Of a DNA stretch of 64,000 nt, positions 2,944 through 15,583 are shown one piece after another. Position 1 is the first letter of the stretch, and each line of letters begins with the position of its first letter. The notes under the pieces are model-generated. The model saw only the letters and a list, made by a program, of their open reading frames with translations. It did not search any database and had not been told where the DNA came from. The stretch covers positions 1 to 64,000 of the forward strand of contig JARGNG010000011.1 of the NCBI GenBank assembly GCA_029213265.1, read 5' to 3'. The DNA comes from Verrucomicrobiales bacterium (lineage in GTDB: Bacteria; Verrucomicrobiota; Verrucomicrobiia; Verrucomicrobiales; DEV007). The position numbers and the translations under genes were made by a program.

Positions 2944-3111
2944 AAGTATAGATCTTCTTTGAAGGAGGCGGAGAGCCTAGAACAGGTTTCCGCGGTACGT
3001 CCAGAGTTTTTCAAAGAGGATTCCATCGCGTTTTGACGCAGGAAGAGTCGGGAGGAGGCCGCATATTTCCTTGATTCCATTCGTCTTTGAACCAAGCGAA
3101 GACAGAATCAC

Positions 3112-4311
3112 ATGGAGGAAAGGAAACCGACAACCGAGAATAGCGGCCCAAAGGCGAAGGAGACATGCAACTCCGTTTCCTGCCTGATCCCGTTTACCTT
3201 CGATCCCGCGACTCTGACCGACGCCGCCAGCAGCTGTCTCGAAAATCTGGCCTCGGATCCCGATCTCGTAATCGCATTCGTATCGTCTGATTATCGTGCC
3301 GATCTCGCGGAATTGATCGAAATCCTGCGAATCGATGGGCATGCCACTCGAATCGTCGGCACCTCCGCAGGGGGCGTTTTCGGAGTCGGGAAAGAACAGG
3401 AAAACGCTTCCGGGCTGTCTCTGCTCTTTCTGAAGATGCCACAGGTCACTCTCACAACCGCGACGGAGTTCGAAAAAGATGGGCCGGCACCAAACCGTGA
3501 GCCCCCTGCCGGGTTCCTGCTTTTCGGCAACCCGGTCCAAAGCGAATTCCAGGACGATCTCGGGAGATGGAATACCAGCTATCCCGGCATTCCGGTAGTA
3601 GGTGGGCTCGGCACCGGGGGCCCGGATCCGGAAGATCTGTTTCTCTTCACGGAAAACGGAATTTTGAAAGCCCCGATGCTGTCGATCCGCTTTGATGGTC
3701 CGATCCGGATCGAACCACTCGTGGCGCAAAGCTGCCGACCCATTGGAGAGCCCTTTGTCGTTACCGGAACCACCTCCGACGACGTCGTGTCAATCGGACG
3801 GAGAAAGGCCTTTTCCGTGCTCGAAGATACTTTCGAGGCGCTACCGGAAGAGTTGCAGGCCGAAGCCGAGGGAAGTATTTTTGCCGGATTGGCCGTGCTG
3901 GAGGAGGTGGAAAACTTCGACACGGGAAATTTCCTGATCCGCCACATTGTCAGTGCCAACCTGGCGAAGGGATGGCTGCAACTCGCGACGACGCCACGGA
4001 TTGGACAAACCATGCAATTTCAGCTTCGGGATGCGACCTCTTCCGAAGTGGTGCTGCGGGACCAATCCACCGCGATCAGGAAAGCGCACGGGGTCCCCTT
4101 TGCAGCCGTCTTTTGCAGCGGGCAGGGACGTGGTCGAAAACTCTATGAGGCCGAAGAACGCGATATTCGGATTCTCGAAGAGCATCTGGGTGTCTTTCCC
4201 ATGGCCGGGCTCTTTTCCAACGGCGAGTTCGGACCGATCGCGGGCTGCAACTTCCGGCATGACCACTCCCTTTGCGGAGCGCTTTTTTACCCGGATTTGG
4301 AAGAGTCCTGA
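3112..4311 (+). CDS. FIST domain signal-sensing protein
   Basis: The 399-residue soluble protein matches the FIST family: an N-terminal FIST_N region (about residues 20-230, with VIAFVSSDY, IVGTSAGGVFG and a glycine-rich PVVGGLGTGG) and a C-terminal FIST_C region (about 245-385, ending in AGLFSNGEFGP). FIST domains are thought to bind small ligands such as amino acids and usually work in signal transduction. There is no attached kinase, cyclase or methyl-accepting domain, so output must come from a partner. It converges with the protease-GAF pair, overlapping the protease gene by 25 bases at the 3' ends. The ATG is preceded by only a weak purine stretch. Confidence 0.85.
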   Translation: MEERKPTTENSGPKAKETCNSVSCLIPFTFDPATLTDAASSCLENLASDPDLVIAFVSSDYRADLAELIEILRIDGHATRIVGTSAGGVFGVGKEQENASGLSLLFLKMPQVTLTTATEFEKDGPAPNREPPAGFLLFGNPVQSEFQDDLGRWNTSYPGIPVVGGLGTGGPDPEDLFLFTENGILKAPMLSIRFDGPIRIEPLVAQSCRPIGEPFVVTGTTSDDVVSIGRRKAFSVLEDTFEALPEELQAEAEGSIFAGLAVLEEVENFDTGNFLIRHIVSANLAKGWLQLATTPRIGQTMQFQLRDATSSEVVLRDQSTAIRKAHGVPFAAVFCSGQGRGRKLYEAEERDIRILEEHLGVFPMAGLFSNGEFGPIAGCNFRHDHSLCGALFYPDLEES

Positions 4312-5060
4312 TTTTCCCGCAGGCTGGCAAGCGCGGCTTTCAGTTGAAAGGGAGTCAGGTCGGGAAAGTGCTCCCTGAGACGAGCCGCAATGCCCGTCAC
4401 CTGGGGACACGCAAAACTCGTTCCTGTGAACTGCTGCCAACCGCCCCCGGGAGTCGGTGCATCGACGTATACTCCACAGGCCTCGACTTCGGTCGTCCTT
4501 CCCGGATCGAATCGAAAATGGAGCGGATCCGAAAAATAATCCATATCCACCCCGACCACCGAGGAAAGTCCGGCCGGGTAGCCCACCTTGTTCCGCTTGT
4601 TGTCTTTCGCCGCGACCCAGAGCATCCCCTGGTAGTAGGCTTTGTCAGCGATCCGGGCGAGTTGCTCATAGCTGGACTCGGTTCCCAGGCTCAGATTGAG
4701 AACATCCCATTTCTGCTCCACAGCGAATTCCAGGGCAGCGAGGAGCTTCTGCGATGTTGAACTGTGCGAAGCTCCGATTACGCGGATGCTGTGGAGTTCT
4801 GCATCCGGCGCGTGCCTGTGAATGATGTAGGCGCAGGCGGTGCCGTGTTCGATGACATCCTTCCCCTTTTCCAGAGACACGACGGTGGGCTTGGCAGGGC
4901 GCCGTTCCACGACTTCATAGTTTCCGGCCACCCGACCGTTCAGTTCAGGAATCTCCGAGGCTACACCGGAATCGAGAATCCCGACACGGACTCCCTTTCC
5001 AGTACCGGATTCGAGACATTCACGAAGACGGTCGCTGTCGAGAATCTGATCAAAGGTCAT
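4287..5060 (-). CDS. Small cytoplasmic subtilisin-like serine protease (S8 family)
   Basis: At 257 residues this is a compact S8 peptidase domain with no signal peptide or propeptide. With the chosen start the catalytic triad is Asp30 (GILDSG), His72 (EHGTACA) and Ser215 (GTSFACP); the oxyanion Asn region reads AAKDNKRN instead of the usual GN. The ATG at 5060 follows a GAGGGAG ribosome-binding site and overlaps the end of the GAF gene by 11 bases, implying translational coupling; a start 39 bases upstream is possible but poorer. The lack of export signals and the coupling to a GAF sensor suggest regulated intracellular proteolysis. The target is unknown. Confidence 0.85.
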   Translation of the reverse strand: MTFDQILDSDRLRECLESGTGKGVRVGILDSGVASEIPELNGRVAGNYEVVERRPAKPTVVSLEKGKDVIEHGTACAYIIHRHAPDAELHSIRVIGASHSSTSQKLLAALEFAVEQKWDVLNLSLGTESSYEQLARIADKAYYQGMLWVAAKDNKRNKVGYPAGLSSVVGVDMDYFSDPLHFRFDPGRTTEVEACGVYVDAPTPGGGWQQFTGTSFACPQVTGIAARLREHFPDLTPFQLKAALASLRENQDSSKSG

Positions 5061-5787
5061 ACGCTCCCTCTTCTTCGTCTCTCGCAGCGAATTCGCCAAG
5101 CAAATCGGCCATTCGATAGAGCATCTCCCTCTCCTTCTCCGGCAGGGTGAGCGATTTCTCGGCGATCAGAGCGGGCATGCGATATTTTAAAGCAACCGCT
5201 CCGGCGTTTGCGGCCTCCCCGAGTCCTTCCAGTTCGAATTCCCTGGCGTGCTCGGCAATCTCCAGCCCCGCCACCGAGGTGCTGAATTCAATCTTCCGGT
5301 ATAGCTTCATCCCGGTCGCGTAGATTTCGCCGAATCCCTGTGCCATTTTTAAATCTTCAATCGAGAAGGGCGTGTCGCTCGCTTCGCCGGACCGGTTCAC
5401 GAACGTGGCAACGCCGTAAACGCGATCATCATCGACGATGGGCACCGCGAGAAGAAACTTGGTCTCGATCTGTGCGACCTTGTCGACGGTGCTGGCCCCG
5501 ACACTGTCCGGATGAATCTTTGCCATGGCCTGGCGGGAACTGAAAACATAGCCACTCACGGATCCATCTACCGGCACCGTGATATCCGACGGGTCAAGCG
5601 CCGGATTCATCGAGACGAGAAAGCGAAGCTCGGTTTCGTCGCCGGAGGGAACAAGAATCGACCCTTCCGAGGCGGAGATCGCTTCGCAGGTATCGCGCAC
5701 CAGTTGGCGAAGCATCGCTGCCGCATCGGTAAGGATACCGTCTCCGTGACTCCTGATTCGTTTGAGCGCGGTCGCAAAGTCGGACAT
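5050..5787 (-). CDS. GAF domain sensor protein
   Basis: The 245-residue protein (from MSDFATALKR) carries a GAF domain at about residues 25-165: ISASEGSILVPSGD, the central DGSVSGYVFSSRQ turn and LLAVPIVDDDRVYGVATFVNR are the usual GAF strands and the ligand-covering loop. After it comes a helical C-terminus, about 165-245, rich in Glu and Ala, that may dimerise or bind a partner. It is the first gene of a two-gene unit with the S8 protease, whose start lies inside the end of this gene. GAF domains bind cyclic nucleotides, haem or other small ligands; which one cannot be told here. An upstream in-frame start exists at 5835, but it adds a non-GAF, low-similarity leader. Confidence 0.82.
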   Translation of the reverse strand: MSDFATALKRIRSHGDGILTDAAAMLRQLVRDTCEAISASEGSILVPSGDETELRFLVSMNPALDPSDITVPVDGSVSGYVFSSRQAMAKIHPDSVGASTVDKVAQIETKFLLAVPIVDDDRVYGVATFVNRSGEASDTPFSIEDLKMAQGFGEIYATGMKLYRKIEFSTSVAGLEIAEHAREFELEGLGEAANAGAVALKYRMPALIAEKSLTLPEKEREMLYRMADLLGEFAARDEEEGAYDL

Positions 5788-6010
5788 GGAATGAATAGAA
5801 CACAAACGCCGCTTCGCCGCAGCAAGAAAGAGCATAGGTCCCGCCCCCTTTTTGATGGTTTAGGCCCCTTGGAAGGCTTTCAGTCGAAATTCGTCCGATT
5901 TGTGCTTAAGCGTTTTCGCTTCCAAATCGGGAATCAAAAAGGCGACGGGATAATTCACCTGCAAAAATACTGAATGTCAGACCACTTGCCGACCGCACAT
6001 ACAAAAAGAT

Positions 6011-7210
6011 CTACCAGCCACCCGGCCCCAACTGGTCCGCCCAGGCAGCCCACTCCCGTTTCTCATAATCATCCGCGACTTCCCTGTCTTCCTTTTGAAA
6101 GTAGTCCCACGCCTCTTCAAATTCGTGGACGAGCCTGCCGTCACAGTCGACAATCCGCTGAAACCACGCGGGATCGGTAAGACCAAATTTTTTCACGGCT
6201 TCGGGCGCATTGGCGAGGAACTCTTCACGGAAGGAAGGATCAGAGATCCGCCCCATCAGTGTCCGCTGAAAACTGCGCAATCCCGAGAACTCCGGGTGAA
6301 GCGGATCCGGGCCCGCAACGTCCACTTCGGAATAACCGGGCGCAGGAACATCGGGTGCCACCGTCGGGCGATGGGAATAGAAAATCTCCCGGGCCTTGCG
6401 GATATCCTGCATCACCGAAGCGAAAGGCCTCAGTTTACTGTCCCGCTCCAGGATGACATTCCTGACATTCGCCGAACGCTTCACCGCTTCGTCAAACAGG
6501 GGCCAGACTTCCTCCATAACCGGCGCGGAGTGACTGTCCTCCCATCGCCCATCGGGAAGTTGATGCCCTCCCGCGAGGTGCATTTGCGAAACGCGATCCA
6601 TTGGCAGTTTATCAAAAAACTCAATCGGATCGTAGCCGTGGTTTCGGGAGTTGTTGAACACGTTGGTGACATCGAGCAAGAGAGTGCAGTCGGTTTCCTC
6701 ACAGATACGCCGGAGGAAATCCGCTTCGCTCAGCGAACTGTGAGGAGCAGGAAAGGAATAGGTAACATTCTCCAGCGCAAAGGGCCGACCCAGCCTTCGG
6801 CGAACCGCATAGTAGTTTTCCTTGACCCATTGGACCGCCACTTCTTCGAACGGAATCGCGAGAAACATGGTGAGGTCGTTTCCATCGACGCTGTGAAAGG
6901 CAAGGTGCTCACTGAAAACATTCAGCCCGTGCTCCTCCAGGAAGCGGTTCGTAGCATTCAGATAGGTTTCATTCAACTCACCGACCGTTCCGATGGAGAG
7001 ACTCAAACCATGAGCAACACAGGGGAAAGTTCCCAATGCATCCTTGAGAAGGCGTTCATTGGGATCCGAGTAGGTCCGTCTCTCGCGAACGATATAGTCC
7101 TCGGTCGAGATCTCGAGAAGGTCGATTTCGGAGCGGTGCGCGACCGCTTCCGCGTGAACATTGAAGCGGTAGGCAAGTCCGATTCCGTAGGGGTGCTCGT
7201 GTTGATTCAT
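6011..7210 (-). CDS. DUF692/MNIO family multinuclear iron oxidase, RiPP-modifying, with extra C-terminal helical domain
   Basis: From the ATG at 7210 (MNQHEHPYGIGLAYRF) the protein has 399 residues. The first 280 form a DUF692 TIM barrel. Candidate metal ligands and conserved motifs are H68 (VAHGLSLSIG), H102 (SEHLAFH), E147-N148, D180 (LLLDVTNVFNNSRNHG), H211 (QMHLAGGH), D225/H227 (DSHSAP) and E255 (ILERD). MNIO enzymes such as MbnB, TglH and ChrH use two or three irons and O2 to oxidise cysteines or other residues of RiPP precursors. Residues 305-399 form an added helical region (SDPSFREEFLANAPEAVKKFGL) that may replace the usual separate DUF2063-type partner, which is absent here. It is the last gene after the radical SAM and precursor genes, so its substrate is very likely that precursor. 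Confidence 0.9.
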   Translation of the reverse strand: MNQHEHPYGIGLAYRFNVHAEAVAHRSEIDLLEISTEDYIVRERRTYSDPNERLLKDALGTFPCVAHGLSLSIGTVGELNETYLNATNRFLEEHGLNVFSEHLAFHSVDGNDLTMFLAIPFEEVAVQWVKENYYAVRRRLGRPFALENVTYSFPAPHSSLSEADFLRRICEETDCTLLLDVTNVFNNSRNHGYDPIEFFDKLPMDRVSQMHLAGGHQLPDGRWEDSHSAPVMEEVWPLFDEAVKRSANVRNVILERDSKLRPFASVMQDIRKAREIFYSHRPTVAPDVPAPGYSEVDVAGPDPLHPEFSGLRSFQRTLMGRISDPSFREEFLANAPEAVKKFGLTDPAWFQRIVDCDGRLVHEFEEAWDYFQKEDREVADDYEKREWAAWADQLGPGGW

Positions 7211-7475
7211 GAAAAAAGAAGTGTCAGGATTCGGGGCAGCTAACAGGGTTGAGTCATCATCCAGACGTTGTTGCGTGTCTTTGCGAAGCAATCCAACCTG
7301 GTTAGCGGCGGAACATTCGCACCTCTTCTGAGACGAACAGGAGAGAAAAACTATGCGACCTTTTATGTCGGTTAGGAAAGCTGGGAAAGAAAATCTTCGG
7401 ATCACCGGAGAGGAGCTTTCGCGCCCCGTCCGGCAACCGAAGATTGCTTCACGAGGGGATTTTCACCCCCTTTGA
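7211..7475 (-). other. Spacer between RiPP precursor and MNIO gene
   Basis: No gene is supported in these 265 bases. Just after the precursor stop there is a short inverted repeat (AGGGG and CCCCT arms, 7454-7471) without a U-run. It could slow transcription or stabilise the precursor mRNA, as often seen where a precursor must be made in excess of its enzymes. Near the MNIO start, at 7242-7250, lies one copy of the AACCCTGTT element (minus-strand reading TGACTCAACCCTGTT) that recurs elsewhere in the window. An in-frame upstream extension of the MNIO gene to 7405 exists but has no family similarity. Confidence 0.45.
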
Positions 7476-7832
7476 TCAGTGGCAGTGGTTGCGCCAGCAA
7501 TTGCGTCGCCAGTGGTTACAAAAGTAATTCCGACGCCAGCACCATCCGTGTGCCTCGACATCTCCTTCTACTTCCCCTTCCGGGCCCTGCTCGTAGCCGC
7601 TGCCACCCATCGGAGGCCCCATGGGCGCACCGCCGGTGTGGATCTGGATTACAACTTGTCCACCGGTACCGGGAACAACCATCTCAGGGCCGGGCCCCAC
7701 TGAACCGGGAGCCGGACCGACGCCGACTTCACCGAGTTTTTCTTTGATCTCTTCTGCCGGGATCAGCTTGTCTTCGAGCTGGTCATCCGCGACATCGTAG
7801 AACTTTCCGTCACTACTTCTAAGTATAGCCAT
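7476..7832 (-). CDS. RiPP precursor peptide with Cys/Trp/Asn-rich C-terminal core
   Basis: The ATG at 7832 follows an AAGGA ribosome-binding site and gives 118 residues. There are three zones. A charged leader (1-34) begins MAILRSSDGKFYDV and runs on as an amphipathic helix. A Gly/Pro-rich spacer covers about 35-90. The core (about 97-118) reads WCWRRNYFCNH then WRRNCWRNHCH. Cysteines fall at 98, 105 and 112, exactly seven apart, plus 117; Trp at 97, 99, 108, 113; Asn at 102, 106, 111, 115. FCN and WRN fit the aromatic-X-Asn motif that GrrM/Xye-type radical SAM enzymes crosslink. It lies between the radical SAM and MNIO genes on the same strand. There is no signal peptide or double-Gly cleavage site, so the maturation protease is unknown. 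Confidence 0.88.
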   Translation of the reverse strand: MAILRSSDGKFYDVADDQLEDKLIPAEEIKEKLGEVGVGPAPGSVGPGPEMVVPGTGGQVVIQIHTGGAPMGPPMGGSGYEQGPEGEVEGDVEAHGWCWRRNYFCNHWRRNCWRNHCH

Positions 7833-7916
7833 GTTATTTTCCTTGGTTTGGTTTTGGTTTGATTGATGGCTTCGCAAAACTGCCGGGTGCAGTCAGCGGA
7901 GGCCAGCAAATTGGTT

Positions 7917-9200
7917 TCAGACTCCGGGAGGCTTCGGCATTTCGATCAGGGGAGACACCGTTTCAGTGATCCCAAGATCATTTTCCAGATCCTCCAGGAT
8001 GATCTCCATCGGCATCATGACCGTGGACCGGCACTGGTGCGTTTCGGTGGAGTCGAAAGTGCCGTTCTCGTAGTATTTGTTCGAGGGAGAAGCACCTCCG
8101 CAGTATTTGTAAAATTGGCAGGTTTCCGAGCACTTCTGATTACCGGCTTCGATGTCGGCGAGAACATGCTGAAAGGCACCGTTGACGGTGGCATCAAAAA
8201 GGGAGCCACTGAGCAGGTTGCCGAAGGTGAAAGATTCGTATTTCTCGGTAGACTGACCGAGCAACTCGGGCGAGAAAGAGGAGAAGTTTCCGAAGCAGTC
8301 CACATTGACCATACCGAACGGATCCGCTTCCTGATTGTAATACCCGCCGTCAGGACGCGAACACCAGCCCGGCTCGAGAATGTTTCGTTCCGCGTTCTGA
8401 AACTCCCGCACATTCAGTGGAAATCCATCCGCCTTGTTGCGAAGGTAAAACTGCTTCAGAAAGGCCCGAATACGATCGAGCCCGCCGTCTTTGCCGAGGG
8501 ATGAGGTTTCATTGGCGCCCTCGACTTCCTCGATATTAAATCCGATACCGGTAATGCCGTGCTCGCGGTAGAAGTCATACATCTCATCGGGATGATCAAC
8601 CGACACGTCTGAGATCACAGAGACGACCCCAAAAGGAACATTGTTCTTTTTCAGGCACTCCATGCCCCTCATCGTCTTGTCGAAGGTCCCCTCACCTTTC
8701 CGGGTTTTTCGATGGTGGTCGTGAATCTCGCGAGGGCCATCAACACTGAGCCCGACCTCGACCTCGTGCTTGTTGAGGAACTCACACCACTTGTCGTTGA
8801 TGAGCGTGCCGTTCGTTTGAACTGAGTGAATGACATAGTCTTTCGCTTTCGGATATCGATTGATGATCTCGAAAGCTTTTTCATACCAGCTGATTGGCAC
8901 TGCGAGCGGTTCACCGGCATGCCAGAGAAGACTGAATGGCGACAGAACCAGTCCGCTGTCCCAGACCTTGTCCATGACCTTTTCAAGAACCGCGTGGTCC
9001 ATCCGGCGGGTATCGGTGCGGTTGGGAAGATAGCAGTAGTCGCAGTTGATATTACAAAAAGGACTCGGCTGAATCACGAGCAATCCCATGGCGAGGCGGT
9101 CGGAATTCTGCGGAGTGAGTTTCGGTTGCACGGCACTGTTGAGGCCTTCGTTGGAAGCAGATGCGGTGCGCTGAGTGGGAGCTTCGAGAGTCGTTGTCAT
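7917..9200 (-). CDS. Radical SAM/SPASM peptide maturase, GrrM-like (cyclophane-forming type)
   Basis: This 427-residue enzyme has the radical SAM cluster motif CNINCDYC (C49, C53, C56) in the context GLLVIQPSPFCNINC. The lines LLWHAGEPLAVP, VQTNGTLINDKWC and VGLSVDGPREIHD closely follow the GrrM/anaerobic sulfatase maturase branch. A SPASM domain with auxiliary cluster cysteines follows (GWCSRPDG, VDCFGNF, CSETCQFYKYCGG). GrrM-type enzymes form C-C crosslinks between an aromatic ring and a beta carbon two residues on, giving three-residue cyclophanes. Its neighbour 84 bases downstream is the precursor. A sulfatase-maturase role is less likely because of this pairing and because the nearest sulfatase gene is 8 kb away, but it cannot be fully excluded. 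Confidence 0.9.
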   Translation of the reverse strand: MTTTLEAPTQRTASASNEGLNSAVQPKLTPQNSDRLAMGLLVIQPSPFCNINCDYCYLPNRTDTRRMDHAVLEKVMDKVWDSGLVLSPFSLLWHAGEPLAVPISWYEKAFEIINRYPKAKDYVIHSVQTNGTLINDKWCEFLNKHEVEVGLSVDGPREIHDHHRKTRKGEGTFDKTMRGMECLKKNNVPFGVVSVISDVSVDHPDEMYDFYREHGITGIGFNIEEVEGANETSSLGKDGGLDRIRAFLKQFYLRNKADGFPLNVREFQNAERNILEPGWCSRPDGGYYNQEADPFGMVNVDCFGNFSSFSPELLGQSTEKYESFTFGNLLSGSLFDATVNGAFQHVLADIEAGNQKCSETCQFYKYCGGASPSNKYYENGTFDSTETHQCRSTVMMPMEIILEDLENDLGITETVSPLIEMPKPPGV

Positions 9201-9587
9201 GTTGCTGGGTGTGACGATTGAAGAATCTGGTTAGGTGACTTTTCTGAATCAAATTACCCACCCTGCTCAAGGCGAACCTGCCTTACTTTTTGAGAATAAC
9301 CCTTCGCAGCGCTGTGGCGCTTCCGAACAAGTTCGATCCGGTAATCGAGAGGCTGACGGGATCGCACTCCTTTTCGAACAGAACAGATGCGATCGTTGAG
9401 GGATGTTGATTTCATGCAGATTGGGGTGGTGAAGAGATTGGGGCTGAAGATCGAAACGAAACGGGAAATTTTTCCACTACAGTTTTGAACTTGTATTCGA
9501 AAGTGATCCAATTCAGTCTTCTCGTAGAGACGGGTTGAGGGTTCGATTTATGCAAAGCAGTCTCACAAAATTTTGCTCCAATTTCCG
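9201..9587. promoter_or_regulatory. Divergent control region between RiPP operon and ABC exporter
   Basis: These 387 bases separate the minus-strand radical SAM operon from the plus-strand exporter and should hold both promoters; I cannot assign -35/-10 boxes with confidence. A short minus-strand reading frame (9254-9415, 53 residues, starting MKSTSLNDR, very Arg/Lys-rich) lies here. It lacks a good ribosome-binding site and resembles nothing I know, so it is not called as a gene. The shared upstream region suggests that the exporter and the biosynthetic genes may be controlled together. Confidence 0.5.
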
Positions 9588-11387
9588 ATGTCAGCTGATT
9601 CATCCCACGGCGTCGTGCCAGAACCTGAAGAAGGCGGAACAGAAAAGCCGGGGCCGGACGATTCAAACAGGGAGAGGACTCCACCCGGTTTTGACATGGA
9701 TCCCCGGGAAATGCGAAAGCACTGCTTTCGGCTCATCCGCGAAGTCACCGGGCGCCTCGGGTGGAAATATAGGCTCTGGATTCCTGCAGCGATGCTGCTT
9801 TCGGCGGTCCATCTTTTACCGCCGCGCTTTTTGCAGTTCTTTACCGAGCGCACCCTGACACTGTCTGAAACCGGAGCCGACGATTTCATCAAAATGCTGA
9901 TACTCTTCGGCCTCGCCGTGGGTGTTTGTCAGTGGATCGGTCTCGTTTTTGACAGCATCCTGAGCGAATGGCTCCGACTCACGGTCAGCATGCGAATGAA
10001 GCAGGATGCCGTTGACAGTCTCAACCGGACGCGAATTGATGCCCTCGATTCCGCCGAACGGGGGGACTGGATGACGAGACTTTCGAGTGATATCTACAAC
10101 GCCGAGGAATTCCTGACCGCCTCCCTGCCGGAACAGGTCACCAATGCGACGATGATGATGGGTGCCGCCGCGCTCTTCTACTACCACAGTGGACCGATCG
10201 CTTTCATTCCCCTGGTCGCGGCTCTTTTCCTGGGATGGTTCAACATCGCCGTTCAGCGCAAAATGGGCCCGGCCCTGGGACGGGCGCGAATGCTCGAAGG
10301 CGGCGTATTTCAATCCATGATCGAAACATTCGAAGGACTGCGAACGATCCGCAGCTACGGAGGGGAAAAGTTCACCGGCCGAAAACTCGACAAACAATTG
10401 AAGGAACTCTTCCAGACCGGAATGAGCATTACCAAGTCGATGGCGCTTCTCATAGGCGTCACCGAATTCGTCGGGCAACTCGTGGTAACAGGTCTCCTCA
10501 CGCTGGTGGCCTTCCAGATCGTCGGAAAATCGCTCACCGCGGAGGATGCCCTCGTTTATCCTTTCTATCTCACGCTCTTCCTCGGTGCGGCAAAGGGACT
10601 CGTTGGTTCCGCCTACGATTGGAACCGCTTCTTCATCGAGGGCGGCCGGCTCGCCACTTTGTTGTACGACGACGACAATAAGGAACACGATCGGGAAGCG
10701 CTCTTCGGTGACTTTGAGAGCCACGTTTCCGGGGTTCGCCAGTACTCCGCTTCCGCGGTGAACATTGCCTATGGCGACAATCCCCCTGTCGTGAGGGATC
10801 AGGATCTCGAACTGAAGCGCGGCGAGATCGTTGCCCTGATGGGAGAATCCGGCTGTGGAAAGTCGACCATGACGGAATCTTTTGCCGGCCTGCGGCAGGC
10901 GACCTCAGGGACTTTCACTGCGATTCTGGAGGATGGCAGCGAACGAAGCTTCCCGCAGTCACCGCCCTACCTGTCCGCATTCGTCGAACAACAGCCCTAC
11001 CTTTTCGTGGGAACAATTCGCGATAACATCTCTCTCGGAGCGGAAGAAATCACGGATGACGACATTTGGGGAGCTCTCGATGAAGTTGGATTGCGAGATC
11101 TGATTCAACGACGGGGCGGTCTCGATCACGTCCTGACGGACCGGGGACGAAACCTGAGCGTGGGGCAGCAGTATCGTCTCGCCCTTTGTCGCGCACTTGT
11201 CTGCGGTCGGCCATTCCTCCTGATGGATGAGCCGTTCGCAGCCCTCGATATTGAATCGGTCGATCTCGTCGTGAAGGCGATGATCGAAGAGAAAGCGCGG
11301 GGCACCGGTATTCTTTTGATCACCCACCTTCTGCCCGAATCCCTTGACGCCAACCGCGTCGTGAAGATGTCTCCCCACCGCACCTAA
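9588..11387 (+). CDS. ABC exporter (fused membrane and ATPase domains), probable RiPP exporter
   Basis: From the ATG at 9588 (MSADSSHGVV) the protein has 599 residues: a hydrophilic N-terminus, an exporter-type transmembrane domain (about 60-330) with several long helices, and an ATPase domain. The ATPase shows Walker A GESGCGKST (about 418), a signature LSVGQ in place of LSGGQ (about 522), Walker B FLLMDEPFAALD (about 545) and the H-loop ITHL (about 578). There is no C39 peptidase domain, so leader removal must occur elsewhere. The layout resembles half-transporters that dimerise to export peptides or lipids. Its divergent position next to the precursor operon makes export of the modified peptide the likely job. 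A TTG start 15 bases upstream is less likely. Confidence 0.87.
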   Translation: MSADSSHGVVPEPEEGGTEKPGPDDSNRERTPPGFDMDPREMRKHCFRLIREVTGRLGWKYRLWIPAAMLLSAVHLLPPRFLQFFTERTLTLSETGADDFIKMLILFGLAVGVCQWIGLVFDSILSEWLRLTVSMRMKQDAVDSLNRTRIDALDSAERGDWMTRLSSDIYNAEEFLTASLPEQVTNATMMMGAAALFYYHSGPIAFIPLVAALFLGWFNIAVQRKMGPALGRARMLEGGVFQSMIETFEGLRTIRSYGGEKFTGRKLDKQLKELFQTGMSITKSMALLIGVTEFVGQLVVTGLLTLVAFQIVGKSLTAEDALVYPFYLTLFLGAAKGLVGSAYDWNRFFIEGGRLATLLYDDDNKEHDREALFGDFESHVSGVRQYSASAVNIAYGDNPPVVRDQDLELKRGEIVALMGESGCGKSTMTESFAGLRQATSGTFTAILEDGSERSFPQSPPYLSAFVEQQPYLFVGTIRDNISLGAEEITDDDIWGALDEVGLRDLIQRRGGLDHVLTDRGRNLSVGQQYRLALCRALVCGRPFLLMDEPFAALDIESVDLVVKAMIEEKARGTGILLITHLLPESLDANRVVKMSPHRT

Positions 11388-11444
11388 GCTATTTTTCTTC
11401 TTTGCACTCGTCACGTCACGTGAAATAGTGGCAAATTAGTACGT

Positions 11445-11894
11445 ATGAAGCTTCTTTCCCCCACCTCTTCGCTGGTTCTTCTAGCACTTGCTTGCGCGCT
11501 GCCGGCCATTCCGCAGCATAGCTCTGCCGATGTCTTTCGCGGCAAGGTTACCTTACGGGGCGTTCTCGTATCCCGTGGCCAGGTCACTGACATCTCCGCC
11601 AACTTCCGTTCTGATCGGATGGTTTCTTCTGAAGGCCAGGAGATTCGGATGAATGGAGGCGGTCTTTACACCTTGAACAGTGCCAATCCGACAGGCACCT
11701 ACAAAGGCCGAACCAAGAGAATTACCAATAAGTACGGCAACGTTCGCCGGGTAAGCCAAAAGAAGCCGATTCGAGTTTCCCGACGTTCAATCACGTTTCC
11801 TGACGGGCGCATTCGCCTTTCCAGCCCCATCAACGTCACCGGTGCAGGTCGCTACCGGCTCAAGGGGTCCGGCCGGTTCCGTGTGAATGCCTGA
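11445..11894 (+). CDS. Secreted beta-rich protein of unknown function
   Basis: The 149-residue protein has a signal peptide (about 1-29, ending HSSADVF). The remaining 120 residues are rich in Arg, Gly and Ser and alternate in a way that suggests a beta barrel or sandwich, for example FRGKVTLRGVLVSRG and GAGRYRLKGSGRFRV. I do not recognise a family. It lies 57 bases downstream of the ABC exporter on the same strand, separated by an AT-rich stretch, and is followed by a strong terminator. It could therefore be the last gene of the exporter unit or an independent gene. No cysteines remain in the mature part, which argues against a second RiPP precursor. Confidence 0.7.
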   Translation: MKLLSPTSSLVLLALACALPAIPQHSSADVFRGKVTLRGVLVSRGQVTDISANFRSDRMVSSEGQEIRMNGGGLYTLNSANPTGTYKGRTKRITNKYGNVRRVSQKKPIRVSRRSITFPDGRIRLSSPINVTGAGRYRLKGSGRFRVNA

Positions 11895-11926
11895 TTTGGA
11901 AAGAGCCCGTTCTTTCCCGACTTAGG

Positions 11927-11960
11927 AAAGCCCCTCCTGATAAACGGAAGGGGCTTTTTT
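11927..11960 (+). terminator. Rho-independent terminator
   Basis: A perfect 9-base stem (AAAGCCCCT with AGGGGCTTT, 11927-11935 and 11949-11957) encloses a 13-base loop and runs into a T-tract. It closes the transcript of the exporter and secreted-protein genes. Confidence 0.85.
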
Positions 11961-12001
11961 GTGGCTGCTTCGAATAGACACTCCGGAGAAGAAAGCTCCC
12001 T

Positions 12002-13243
12002 CTATTTCCCGACGTTGTATAGCACCGTCCCTGAACGAATCAGAAGATTCCCGCGATGAGGCGTCAGGGTCGCGCGGAAAATCTGGCCGGCGGCGGCATC
12101 CCCCAGTGAGTTCACAGCCACAATATCAAGTTCCTTTCCGGGGCGAATCACAACGACGTCCCCGCCCTGCACCGTTTGCAGGTAAACCAGTCCGTTGGCC
12201 ACCAAGGGAGCTGCGGCAACCTCCACGCCTTTTTCCTCATTGAGGCGTTCGGCGTAGAGGGGCTTTCCGGTTTCGGCATCGTAGCAGGAAAAAATCCCGC
12301 TCATGCTCGAGATGCAAAGGTATCCATCGACTACCACAGGAGACGGCAGATCCCGCCCCCCTTTGCGCGAAGCGTGCCAGAGCATGTGAGAATCCGTCAC
12401 GTCACCTGAGCCACCCGGCTTCACACAGTAGGTATCACCGGGCTTTCCGTTCACGACATACAATTTTCCATCGGCAAAGTCCGGTACGGGAGCCCCGCGC
12501 CCATTGAACCCTTTGCAGAACCACAATTCCTTACCGCTTTTCGGATCATAGCCCCGAACGCCAAACTCTCCGTTCAAAACCAGTTCCTGCTTCCCGTCCA
12601 ACTCGATCAGAATCGGGGTGCTCCACCCTCCACGTGGCTTCGCCTCCCTCGGAGTTCCCCAAATGACGGAACCGTCCTTGATATTCAAAGCGATCAACTT
12701 CGACTCTCCCATCGAGTCCGTATTCTGGATGATTTTTCCATCGACCAGGACCGGCGAGGCGGCGATCCCCCATCCTCCGGGAAATTCCCCGAGATCGACC
12801 GACCATTTCTTCTCCCCGTCCACGGTAAATCCATGCAAGCCTCCGGGTCCGAAAAATGCGACCACCATCTCTCCGTCGGTCACACAACTCGGAGTCGCTC
12901 GGCTGTTCATTGCGTGAATCTCTTCCGGATTGTCACAAGGGACAGACTTGCTCCAAATCATGGAACCATCCTTTGCGGACAGGCACATCACGGTCCGTTC
13001 CGTTCCGTCTTCCGAAGCACCCGTCAGAAAAATCTGATCGCCCCAGGTAACCGGCGATGACTGGCCTGATCCCTTTAACTTCGTCTTCCAGACTATCTTC
13101 GATTCGTCCCACGATACGGGAACATCAGTGGCCTCAGAGTGGCCCCGGCCCGTTGGCCCGCGGAATTGATACCAGTTATCTTCAGCGACGACGGAAGCGC
13201 CAAGGGCTCCCAGCAGACTCAAAGTGAGAAAGGTAGTTTTCAT
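12002..13243 (-). CDS. Exported PQQ-like beta-propeller repeat protein
   Basis: The 413-residue protein begins with a signal peptide (MKTTFLTLSLLGALGASVVAE). A WD40-like PQQ propeller follows, shown by the repeated blades with W at the end of strands (DGSMIWSKSVP, DGEKKWSVDLG, DGSVIWGTP, GKELWFCKG, LWHASRKGG). The start NWYQFRGPTGRGHS is a hallmark of the outer-membrane or periplasmic PQQ-like repeat proteins common in Planctomycetota and Verrucomicrobiota. No quinoprotein dehydrogenase calcium or active-site motif is visible, so a binding or scaffolding role is more likely than an enzymatic one. It is 3 bases downstream of an exported methyltransferase gene and surely co-transcribed with it. 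Confidence 0.87.
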   Translation of the reverse strand: MKTTFLTLSLLGALGASVVAEDNWYQFRGPTGRGHSEATDVPVSWDESKIVWKTKLKGSGQSSPVTWGDQIFLTGASEDGTERTVMCLSAKDGSMIWSKSVPCDNPEEIHAMNSRATPSCVTDGEMVVAFFGPGGLHGFTVDGEKKWSVDLGEFPGGWGIAASPVLVDGKIIQNTDSMGESKLIALNIKDGSVIWGTPREAKPRGGWSTPILIELDGKQELVLNGEFGVRGYDPKSGKELWFCKGFNGRGAPVPDFADGKLYVVNGKPGDTYCVKPGGSGDVTDSHMLWHASRKGGRDLPSPVVVDGYLCISSMSGIFSCYDAETGKPLYAERLNEEKGVEVAAAPLVANGLVYLQTVQGGDVVVIRPGKELDIVAVNSLGDAAAGQIFRATLTPHRGNLLIRSGTVLYNVGK

Positions 13244-13963: not shown

Positions 13964-14206
13964 AGAGATAGTTTGCGGGGAGATTGGCAAAACGAAAGAC
14001 CGAAATTGTGCAGATTTGCGGAAGGTCGGTCACCGTTGATTGCCACCTTTCAGGTCATCCCGTCAACAGGGTCTTGTGGCCCGGAGCGTCTTCGGAACCT
14101 GAGACCGGTCACAATTCGGGGTTCGGTCGAGCTCCCGGATTTCCGCCCGTTTTTTCCAGATTGCCTGATTGTTGGGAAAGGCGTAAGGTCTCCTCTTACA
14201 ATTCCT

Positions 14207-15583
<1,377 letters not shown>

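What the first reader, a model, noticed from the sequence alone, without database searches (positions are those of the whole stretch)
6011..11387. New-looking RiPP system: GrrM-like radical SAM, MNIO oxidase and a Cys/Trp/Asn-rich precursor in one operon with a divergent ABC exporter
The order radical SAM/SPASM, precursor, DUF692/MNIO is seen directly, as is the adjacent full-size ABC exporter. Known precedents each use one side: GrrM/Xye/Fxs enzymes form three-residue cyclophanes, and MNIO enzymes (MbnB, TglH, ChrH) oxidise Cys or other residues. Clusters combining an MNIO with other radical SAM types exist, but I know of none joining a cyclophane-type enzyme, an MNIO and this core. Inference: the peptide carries both crosslinks and oxidised cysteines or asparagines and is exported, perhaps as an antimicrobial or metal-binding product.
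Basis: partly seen in the sequence, partly recalled or inferred. Interest (0 to 1): 0.95.

Follow-up and report, generated by a model that had tools for sequence, protein, structure and literature searches.

The report
Doubly modified cross-linked peptide gene cluster
This stretch of a bacterial genome (its named relatives are Verrucomicrobia) holds a conserved gene set around one small tryptophan- and cysteine-rich peptide, with two different metal enzymes that are predicted to cross-link and to oxidise that same peptide before it is likely cut free and exported, a pairing for which I found no published precedent.

Summary
A GrrM/OscB-type radical SAM enzyme, a 118-aa precursor and an MNIO (DUF692) enzyme follow each other on the minus strand, beside a divergent ABC exporter. 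The set is co-inherited. Of 74 genomes of the same family 20 have GrrM; the long-form MNIO and the subtilase occur in the same 20, the precursor in 19 (the 20th has a contig break there). The core keeps FxN and WxN, the triads that OscB crosslinks, and all 19 intact cores have N-C-[W/F]-x-N. Best reading: GrrM makes three-residue cyclophanes, the MNIO oxidises interleaved cysteines, the subtilase removes the leader, the ABC protein exports the product. All chemistry is inferred. Two relatives with the same leader type but another radical SAM lack an adjacent MNIO, so the leader family looks modular. My searches found no printed precedent for a cyclophane-type radical SAM plus MNIO on one precursor. 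New variant of a known kind.

The parts
9254..9415 (-). 53-aa basic protein, motif LxxRIxxVRxxxRxxQPLxxRIxLVR, first gene of the unit; no known family found
   Evidence: Conserved ORF upstream of GrrM; 19 of 20 GrrM genomes, and 2 hits near E 1e-3 in the 54 others; dN/dS 0.21 (motif) to 0.29 (whole) in 12 close copies, 0.40 in all 18; no Pfam match for this copy at E 1
7917..9200 (-). GrrM/OscB-type radical SAM/SPASM enzyme, predicted three-residue cyclophane former
   Evidence: TIGR04261 441 bits, cut-off 310; C49, C53, C56, C302, C357, C361, C367 and C390 invariant in 14 sequences
7476..7832 (-). precursor peptide, 118 aa
   Evidence: 14 same-genus genomes, own included, and 5 further same-family GrrM genomes; dN/dS about 0.14
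7728..7832 (-). leader, residues 1-35 (MAILRSSDGKFYDVADDQLEDKLIPAEEIKEKLGE)
   Evidence: lowest dN/dS of the three parts, 0.069; alignment A1
7641..7661 (-). second conserved leader element GQVVIQI, residues 58-64; possible second docking site (inference)
   Evidence: invariant in 14 of 14 aligned copies; absent from the short 75-82 aa forms
7479..7547 (-). core GWCWRRNYFCNHWRRNCWRNHCH, residues 96-118; leader end placed after EAH by inference
7515..7523 (-). F104-C105-N106, predicted cyclophane triad
   Evidence: F and N invariant in 14 of 14; OscB crosslinks FxN (PMC11002830 passages)
7488..7496 (-). W113-R114-N115, predicted cyclophane triad
   Evidence: invariant in 14 of 14; OscB crosslinks WxN (PMC11002830 passages)
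7497..7499 (-). Cys112 of the N-C-[W/F]-x-N unit, predicted MNIO target
   Evidence: the unit is present in 19 of 19 intact cores from GrrM loci
7539..7541 (-). Cys98, possible further MNIO target
   Evidence: invariant in 14 of 14, missing in some short homologues
7449..7475 (-). hairpin directly after the precursor stop; weak in the window itself
   Evidence: z -1.3 here; z of -2 or lower after 15 of 19 precursor genes, against 4 of 19 in the next 60 nt
6011..7210 (-). MNIO (DUF692) oxidase, 399 aa
6011..6313 (-). C-terminal helical extension of the MNIO, about 100 aa; possible built-in partner domain (inference)
   Evidence: present in 13 of 13 aligned copies; block pLDDT 84-95 over residues 301-360, falling to 50 at the end, in the full model; 59.6 when predicted alone
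5050..5835 (-). GAF-domain protein
   Evidence: PF01590; orthologue in 13 of 20 GrrM genomes, 0 of 54 others at E 1e-25
4287..5099 (-). QhpE-like subtilase, predicted leader peptidase; gene overlaps the GAF gene
   Evidence: PF00082 E 5.3e-26; NF049966 121.8 bits, below the cut-off 165; 19 of 20 GrrM genomes at 143 bits or more and the 20th as a 66%-identical fragment; others at most 125 bits
9573..11387 (+). divergent ABC exporter, membrane domain fused to ATPase, no peptidase domain listed; true start may lie further in
   Evidence: PF00664 and PF00005; beside GrrM in 19 of 20 genomes, in the 20th (G005) the contig ends first
3112..4311 (+). FIST-domain neighbour, convergent with the subtilase; membership uncertain
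   Evidence: also in 7 of the 13 same-genus loci L020-L032

Best explanation
This is a RiPP gene cluster in which a GrrM/OscB-type radical SAM enzyme is predicted to staple the precursor's FxN and WxN triads into three-residue cyclophanes, while an MNIO likely oxidises the cysteines interleaved with those triads on the same peptide. Steps: (1) the two-part leader would hold the enzymes, with the MNIO's C-terminal domain and the small basic protein as candidate docking partners (inferred). (2) GrrM would bond the aromatic ring of F104 and W113 to the beta carbon of N106 and N115, as OscB does (inferred from family and motif); W99 and W108 in WRRN are possible further sites. (3) The MNIO would act on Cys112 and other core cysteines, most plausibly giving a thiooxazole-type group (inferred, least certain). 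(4) The subtilase would remove the leader in the cytoplasm after EAH, as QhpE does for QhpC, perhaps under control of the GAF protein. (5) The ABC protein would export the modified core. Shown directly: gene order, family membership, co-inheritance, and conservation of leader, triads and Cys unit. No chemistry is shown.
For: GrrM above curated cut-off. MNIO by sequence and by modelled fold, with H67, H102, E147, D180, N183, H211, D225, H227 and E255 invariant in 13 copies and aligned to like residues of 3bww and, in part, TglH and MbnB; that these are metal ligands is recalled. Co-inheritance: 20 of 20 GrrM genomes hold the long-form MNIO, against 1 of 54 others, a 36%-identical copy in another setting. 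Precursor in 19 of the 20; in the 20th (G024) GrrM and MNIO lie at contig ends, with the precursor's place between contigs. [W/F]xN spacing is enriched: 543 against 141.5 by shuffling, in the last 30 residues of the 187 homologues listed by two capped searches (best 120 of 190 and of 208); in the 19 intact cores from GrrM loci 41 against 15.0. N-C-[W/F]-x-N in 19 of 19. OscB bonds WxN and FxN (PMC11002830 passages). QhpE cuts the leader before ABC export in the qhp system (PMC7876137 passages).
Against: No modified peptide has been seen. MNIOs do not always act on cysteine: ApyH needs a conserved Cys but modifies Asp (PMC10635010 abstract), PbsC hydroxylates Phe (PMC12257519 passages). The core lacks the Lys-Cys / Cys-Lys motifs of two of the three 5-thiooxazole substrate groups; the third, DUF2282, shows little conservation around Cys (PMC12668002). 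WRRN does not fit the i, i+2 Asn rule, though W/F-x-x-N is also enriched (245 against 136.4). Two relatives (G134, G200) share the leader type and have 2-3 core cysteines, one even with N-C-W-Q-N, yet no adjacent MNIO, so Cys alone does not predict an MNIO. No DUF2063 partner protein was seen among the neighbours scanned; RRE models were not run. Related genomes are not independent, so the Fisher p of 3.6e-17 overstates the case.
Confidence: 0.66

Rival explanations
1. GrrM and MNIO both act, but the MNIO hydroxylates or rearranges Asn, Trp or another core residue, and the cysteines stay free as metal ligands or substrate anchors.
For: MNIOs acting on Asp, Phe and homocitrulline are known; ApyH needs a Cys that it does not modify. 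Asn is at least as conserved in the core as Cys.
Against: Most putative MNIO precursors carry Cys motifs (PMC12452194 abstract). The Cys next to the crosslink triad is present in all 19 intact cores.
Confidence: 0.25
2. The core becomes a cysteine- and histidine-rich metal chelator of the copper-metallophore kind, with the cyclophanes as a rigid frame (a claim about function, which can be true together with the best explanation).
For: MNIO products bufferins and captophorins are linked to copper (PMC12452194, PMC12668002 abstracts). Relatives with the same leader type carry CGH and HCHHC repeat cores (P0176, P0180).
Against: No metal-response gene was identified among the neighbours scanned; the core lacks Lys-Cys and Cys-Lys motifs; one copy (L028:7816-8166) keeps only 2 core Cys.
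Confidence: 0.35
3. The MNIO works on another substrate and is only a neighbour; GrrM alone modifies the precursor.
For: Precursor and MNIO are 265 nt apart, and one relative has a gene between them. OscB, of the same family, crosslinks its precursor when the two are co-expressed in E. coli (PMC11002830 passages).
Against: 20 of 20 GrrM genomes keep this MNIO type; it lies beside the precursor in three genera of the family.
Confidence: 0.1
4. Not a secreted product: the modified peptide is a cofactor-bearing subunit of a periplasmic enzyme, as QhpC is in the qhp system.
For: The subtilase's best NCBIfam match is QhpE, and the order of events (crosslink, cut, ABC export) matches qhp. A PQQ_2/BamB-type beta-propeller protein lies beyond the ABC gene in the window (12002-13243) and has a match in 4 of 13 same-genus loci.
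Against: That propeller is not seen in the other 9 loci, several of which are cut short; the core is only 21-28 residues; the QhpE model is below its cut-off.
Confidence: 0.06

Closest known systems
Triceptides made by GrrM/OscB-type three-residue cyclophane-forming enzymes
   Same: Radical SAM above the TIGR04261 cut-off; WxN and FxN triads; a Gly-rich stretch in the precursor (family trait recalled)
   Different: Precursor matches no NCBIfam or Pfam model; Cys follows or precedes the triads; an MNIO, a subtilase and a 53-aa protein belong to the set
MNIO-made RiPPs: methanobactin, pearlin (TglH), bufferins/captophorins
   Same: MNIO domain, fold match to TglH and MbnB, Cys-containing precursor
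   Different: Precursor starts MAILRS with no signal peptide visible by eye; MNIO scores below the bufferin cut-offs and has its own C-terminal extension; no separate DUF2063 protein seen among the neighbours scanned
Biphenomycin-like peptides and aminopyruvatides (MNIO plus B12-radical SAM)
   Same: An MNIO and a radical SAM enzyme act on one precursor
   Different: There the radical SAM is B12-dependent and joins two aromatics (pbs) or methylates Tyr (apy); here it is a SPASM-type GrrM enzyme
ChlB-type fused radical SAM / HExxH hydroxylases
   Same: Cyclophane formation followed by a second iron oxidation on one peptide (described in PMC12636437)
   Different: The second oxidase is an alpha-ketoglutarate HExxH domain, not an MNIO
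qhp operon (quinohemoprotein amine dehydrogenase maturation)
   Same: Radical SAM, subtilisin-like leader protease and ABC exporter handling one small crosslinked polypeptide
   Different: No MNIO named among its genes; the product is an enzyme subunit; the subtilase here is below the QhpE cut-off

Membership tests
Triceptide / GrrM-OscB systems | radical SAM of the GrrM/OscB subfamily | tested here: met
   TIGR04261 441 bits, cut-off 310; cluster and SPASM cysteines invariant in 14
Triceptide / GrrM-OscB systems | core with aromatic-x-Asn triads | tested here: met
   FxN and WxN in 14 of 14; spacing enriched against shuffles
Triceptide / GrrM-OscB systems | precursor of an already modelled precursor family | tested here: not met
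   0 NCBIfam families at E 0.1 and 0 Pfam families at E 1 for the precursor
Triceptide / GrrM-OscB systems | three-residue cyclophane in the product | not testable with these tools
   needs mass spectrometry and NMR
MNIO (DUF692) RiPP maturases | PF05114 domain with conserved metal-site residues | tested here: met
   PF05114 240.8 bits, cut-off 25; conserved His/Glu/Asp/Asn; that these are ligands is recalled
MNIO (DUF692) RiPP maturases | MNIO fold | tested here: met
MNIO (DUF692) RiPP maturases | partner protein (DUF2063/RRE type) | tested here: inconclusive
   no DUF2063 match among the neighbours scanned; RRE models not run; a C-terminal helical extension is present, but its model alone is poor
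Bufferins / captophorins | MNIO above the HvfB or BufB cut-off | tested here: not met
   205.6 against 360 and 190.7 against 310 bits
Bufferins / captophorins | Sec signal peptide in the precursor | tested here: inconclusive
   none visible by eye in MAILRSSDGKFYDV...; no signal-peptide program was run
Bufferins / captophorins | 5-thiooxazole in the product | not testable with these tools
   needs mass spectrometry, UV and NMR
qhp maturation system | QhpE-type protease above cut-off | tested here: not met
   NF049966 121.8 bits, cut-off 165
qhp maturation system | qhp-type radical SAM (quino_hemo_SAM) | tested here: not met
   TIGR03906 61.1 bits, cut-off 453

The most novel reading that the evidence does not exclude
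A modular peptide family in which one leader type (MAILRSxDGKFYxV) serves different core chemistries: WxN repeats for a cyclophane enzyme alone, Cys-His repeats, and alternating WxN-Cys units read by both a cyclophane-forming radical SAM and an MNIO. The last kind, in this window, would be a stapled peptide whose rigid rings hold oxidised sulfur groups at fixed spacing, the first cyclophane-plus-MNIO hybrid, assembled with a new small helper protein.
Probability: 0.35. Interest if true: 0.85.

Novelty: new variant of a known kind. Interest (0 to 1): 0.7.

Why it matters
If true, a cyclophane-forming radical SAM and an MNIO work on one core with their target residues interleaved, so one enzyme's product sits next to the other's target. 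That would give a new peptide scaffold, a direct test of how one leader docks two unrelated metal enzymes, and a broad precursor family, seen here mostly as unnamed metagenome proteins, whose member in this window matches no Pfam or NCBIfam model.

Tried and rejected
The C-terminal MNIO domain was predicted alone (pLDDT 59.6): too poor, so no fold search was run with it; Pfam gave only sub-threshold LigA hits in two of four copies scanned. Structure matches of the full model cover residues 6-284, so the extension is untested rather than foldless. Search for the wider precursor family on plasmids with two homologues and in viral contigs: none. No Rfam family at gathering score in 3000-13000. 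No sigma-70-like promoter in 7150-9700 (1.2 expected), and 3 terminator-like sites against 2.9 expected. A hairpin after the precursor stop is strong in many relatives but weak in the window (z -1.3), so it carries no weight. The dN/dS for the MNIO printed 0.0 because synonymous sites are saturated; not used. The first version of my locus script failed part-way and was rerun. Considered and rejected: an ordinary bufferin (MNIO below cut-off, different precursor) and an ordinary GrrM cluster (MNIO co-inherited).
Full report
What is there. On the minus strand, in order of transcription: a 53-aa basic ORF (9254-9415), a GrrM/OscB-type radical SAM/SPASM enzyme (7917-9200), a 118-aa precursor (7476-7832), an MNIO (6011-7210), a GAF protein (5050-5835) and a subtilase (4287-5099). 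Divergent from them is an ABC exporter (9573-11387). Family calls: TIGR04261 at 441 bits over a cut-off of 310; PF05114 E 1.9e-71; PF00082 E 5.3e-26; PF00664 and PF00005. I would move the MNIO start to ATG 7210 (domain start; frame lengths of relatives) and widen the borders.

Is the precursor real? One search found it in 16 of 56 related genomes: 14 strong (own genome included) and two weak hits whose loci hold none of the nine query genes. Fourteen copies from 13 genomes were aligned. The copy of the 14th genome, G026, is interrupted by a run of 100 N and was left out; G032 has two copies. dN/dS is 0.143 overall, 0.069 in the leader, 0.218 in the linker and 0.121 in the core; with 53-68% of synonymous sites differing these are rough. 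Invariant across the 14: MAILRS, DG, FY, PG and GQVVIQI, AH, C98, W99, R100, N102, F104, N106, W108, R110, N111, C112, W113, R114, N115 and some others.

Co-inheritance. I searched 74 genomes of the family. GrrM over cut-off: 20 of 74. MNIO: 29 of 74, of two kinds: a bufferin-like kind (277-374 bits) in 10 genomes, and this long-form kind (218-245 bits) in the same 20 genomes as GrrM plus one 36%-identical copy in G200 on a 3-kb contig without the other genes; G210 has only a fragment, unclassified. The split into kinds is mine, from score and frame length. In G013 the MNIO appears on two contigs, as pieces. Precursor: 21 of 386 order-level genomes, of which 19 are GrrM genomes. The 20th GrrM genome, G024, has GrrM at the start of one contig and the MNIO at the end of another, so the precursor would lie in the gap. 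Subtilase: 19 GrrM genomes at E 1.2e-41 or better (143-605 bits), and G013 as an 89-residue, 66%-identical fragment at a contig edge; the best of the other 54 genomes reaches 125 bits. The margin is thin for G024 (153 bits) and G009 (143 bits), but there the gene lies next to the MNIO. In five genomes (G025, G032, G001, G013, G166) the GAF-subtilase pair sits together away from the cluster, in G025 about 10 kb off on the same contig. GAF orthologue: 13 of 20, and 0 of 54. Small ORF: 19 of 20 (absent in G073), with two hits at E 7.5e-4 and 9e-4 among the 54. ABC beside GrrM: 19 of 20; in G005 the contig ends first. In a phylum-wide sample of 387 genomes only the window's own matched the precursor profile. 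The 15 named loci are all Verrucomicrobia (Verrucomicrobiales, Akkermansiaceae or unplaced Verrucomicrobia MAGs). Related genomes are not independent observations.

The small ORF. It was found as a conserved block in the GrrM-ABC intergenic alignment. Eighteen copies align with R9, P22, R26 and R31 invariant and two LxxRIxxVR-like units. dN/dS is 0.21 in the motif and 0.29 overall for 12 close copies, 0.40 for all 18, again with high synonymous divergence; the other two frames are open in 1 and 5 of 18 copies. Some relatives are annotated as hypothetical proteins. Its role is unknown; docking helper or regulator are guesses.

The core and the predicted chemistry. In the 19 intact precursors from GrrM loci, every core holds N-C-[W/F]-x-N and two or three [W/F]xN triads. 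Total [W/F]xN is 41 against 15.0 expected from shuffles; [W/F]-x-x-N is also raised (35 against 14.5), so WRRN may matter too. In the last 30 residues of the 187 homologues listed by two capped searches, a few of them doubtful, the numbers are 543 against 141.5 and 245 against 136.4. OscB, of this enzyme family, bonds Trp C7 to Asn or Asp and Phe C4 to Asn at i and i+2 (PMC11002830 passages). This makes FCN and WRN the best predicted sites. The two relatives with another radical SAM (best match PapB, below every cut-off listed) carry WxN-repeat cores, GAF and subtilase genes, and no adjacent MNIO. Their cores still contain 2-3 cysteines, and one has N-C-W-Q-N.

The MNIO. The AlphaFold model (mean pLDDT 81.1) aligns best with TglH, the H. 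somni DUF692 protein and MbnB, well above other TIM barrels. The last ~100 residues are a conserved helical extension. Most MNIO clusters encode a partner protein (PMC12452194 abstract and section 18); I saw none as a separate gene among the neighbours scanned and suggest, without proof, that the extension fills that place. Whether the target is Cys is the weakest step: ApyH modifies Asp while needing a Cys (PMC10635010 abstract), and 5-thiooxazole clusters have Lys-Cys or Cys-Lys motifs or a DUF2282 precursor (PMC12668002 section 6), the first two of which this core lacks by eye.

Leader removal and export. The subtilase has the DSG, HGT and GTS motifs at D43, H85 and S228 (read; motif knowledge recalled), and no signal peptide is visible by eye. 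QhpE cuts a leader in the cytoplasm before ABC export in the qhp system (PMC7876137 passages). The ABC protein has no peptidase domain in the Pfam listing. This supports cut-then-export, by analogy only.

Novelty. Searches: MNIO + cyclophane + radical SAM, 10 papers; DUF692 + GrrM, 0; two of triceptide/GrrM/radical SAM, 10; MNIO + RiPP + precursor peptide from 2023, 24; Verrucomicrobi + RiPP + radical SAM, 7; two of six related terms, 26; multinuclear nonheme iron + radical SAM + peptide + Verrucomicrobi, 0. What I saw: passages of PMC12257519, PMC11002830, PMC7876137, PMC8692599, PMC9902471 and PMC12636437; abstract, sections 17 and 18 and passages of PMC12452194; abstract and sections 6 and 13 of PMC12668002; abstracts of PMC13060819, PMC12538549, PMC10635010 and PMC13174530; the rest only as search listings. 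In what I saw, none joins a GrrM-type enzyme with an MNIO. The library holds open-licence papers only, and no supplement was read. The MNIO landscape paper has no hit for rSAM, SPASM or Verrucomicrob in its main text, and radical S.. and cyclophane only in its reference list. Both halves are known kinds, so I file it as a new variant of a known kind.

Noticed in passing
L068:5540-5863(+) and within L067:422-988(-): Frames with a leader-like start (MAIVNTLDGRYYDLDPEFLESCRIPDE...; MPRVTGLDGRVFEVTEETLEKCRIPDE...) but no WxN core, next to leader-family precursors; perhaps core-less paralogues or regulators.
   Followed up: partly
homologues P0176 and P0180: Same leader type followed by GHHCGHQCGHRCGHNCGH or HHCHHCHRCHHCHHCH repeat cores, which look like metal-binding peptides; their gene neighbours could not be reached.
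   Followed up: no
window 3112-4311: FIST-domain sensor protein convergent with the subtilase gene; present in 7 of the 13 same-genus loci L020-L032, so it may belong to the system.
   Followed up: partly
window 12002-13243: PQQ_2/BamB-type beta-propeller protein beyond the ABC gene, also matched in 4 of 13 same-genus loci (L021, L022, L023, L027).
   Followed up: partly
L127:10905-12485(-): In one relative a PALP/threonine-dehydratase-type gene is inserted between precursor and MNIO.
   Followed up: partly
L028:7317-7670 and 7816-8166: Two tandem precursor copies in one genome (G032); both lack the C-terminal cysteine and end in a Gly-Tyr-rich tail.
   Followed up: no
G200:C101 (L123:1698-2882): A divergent MNIO (36% identical) just downstream of a 537-aa ABC exporter ORF on a 3-kb contig; its substrate was not found.
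   Followed up: partly
window 13973-15583: ORF with an acidic Glu-Pro-Glu repeat stretch ahead of a GFO/IDH/MocA oxidoreductase domain.
   Followed up: no
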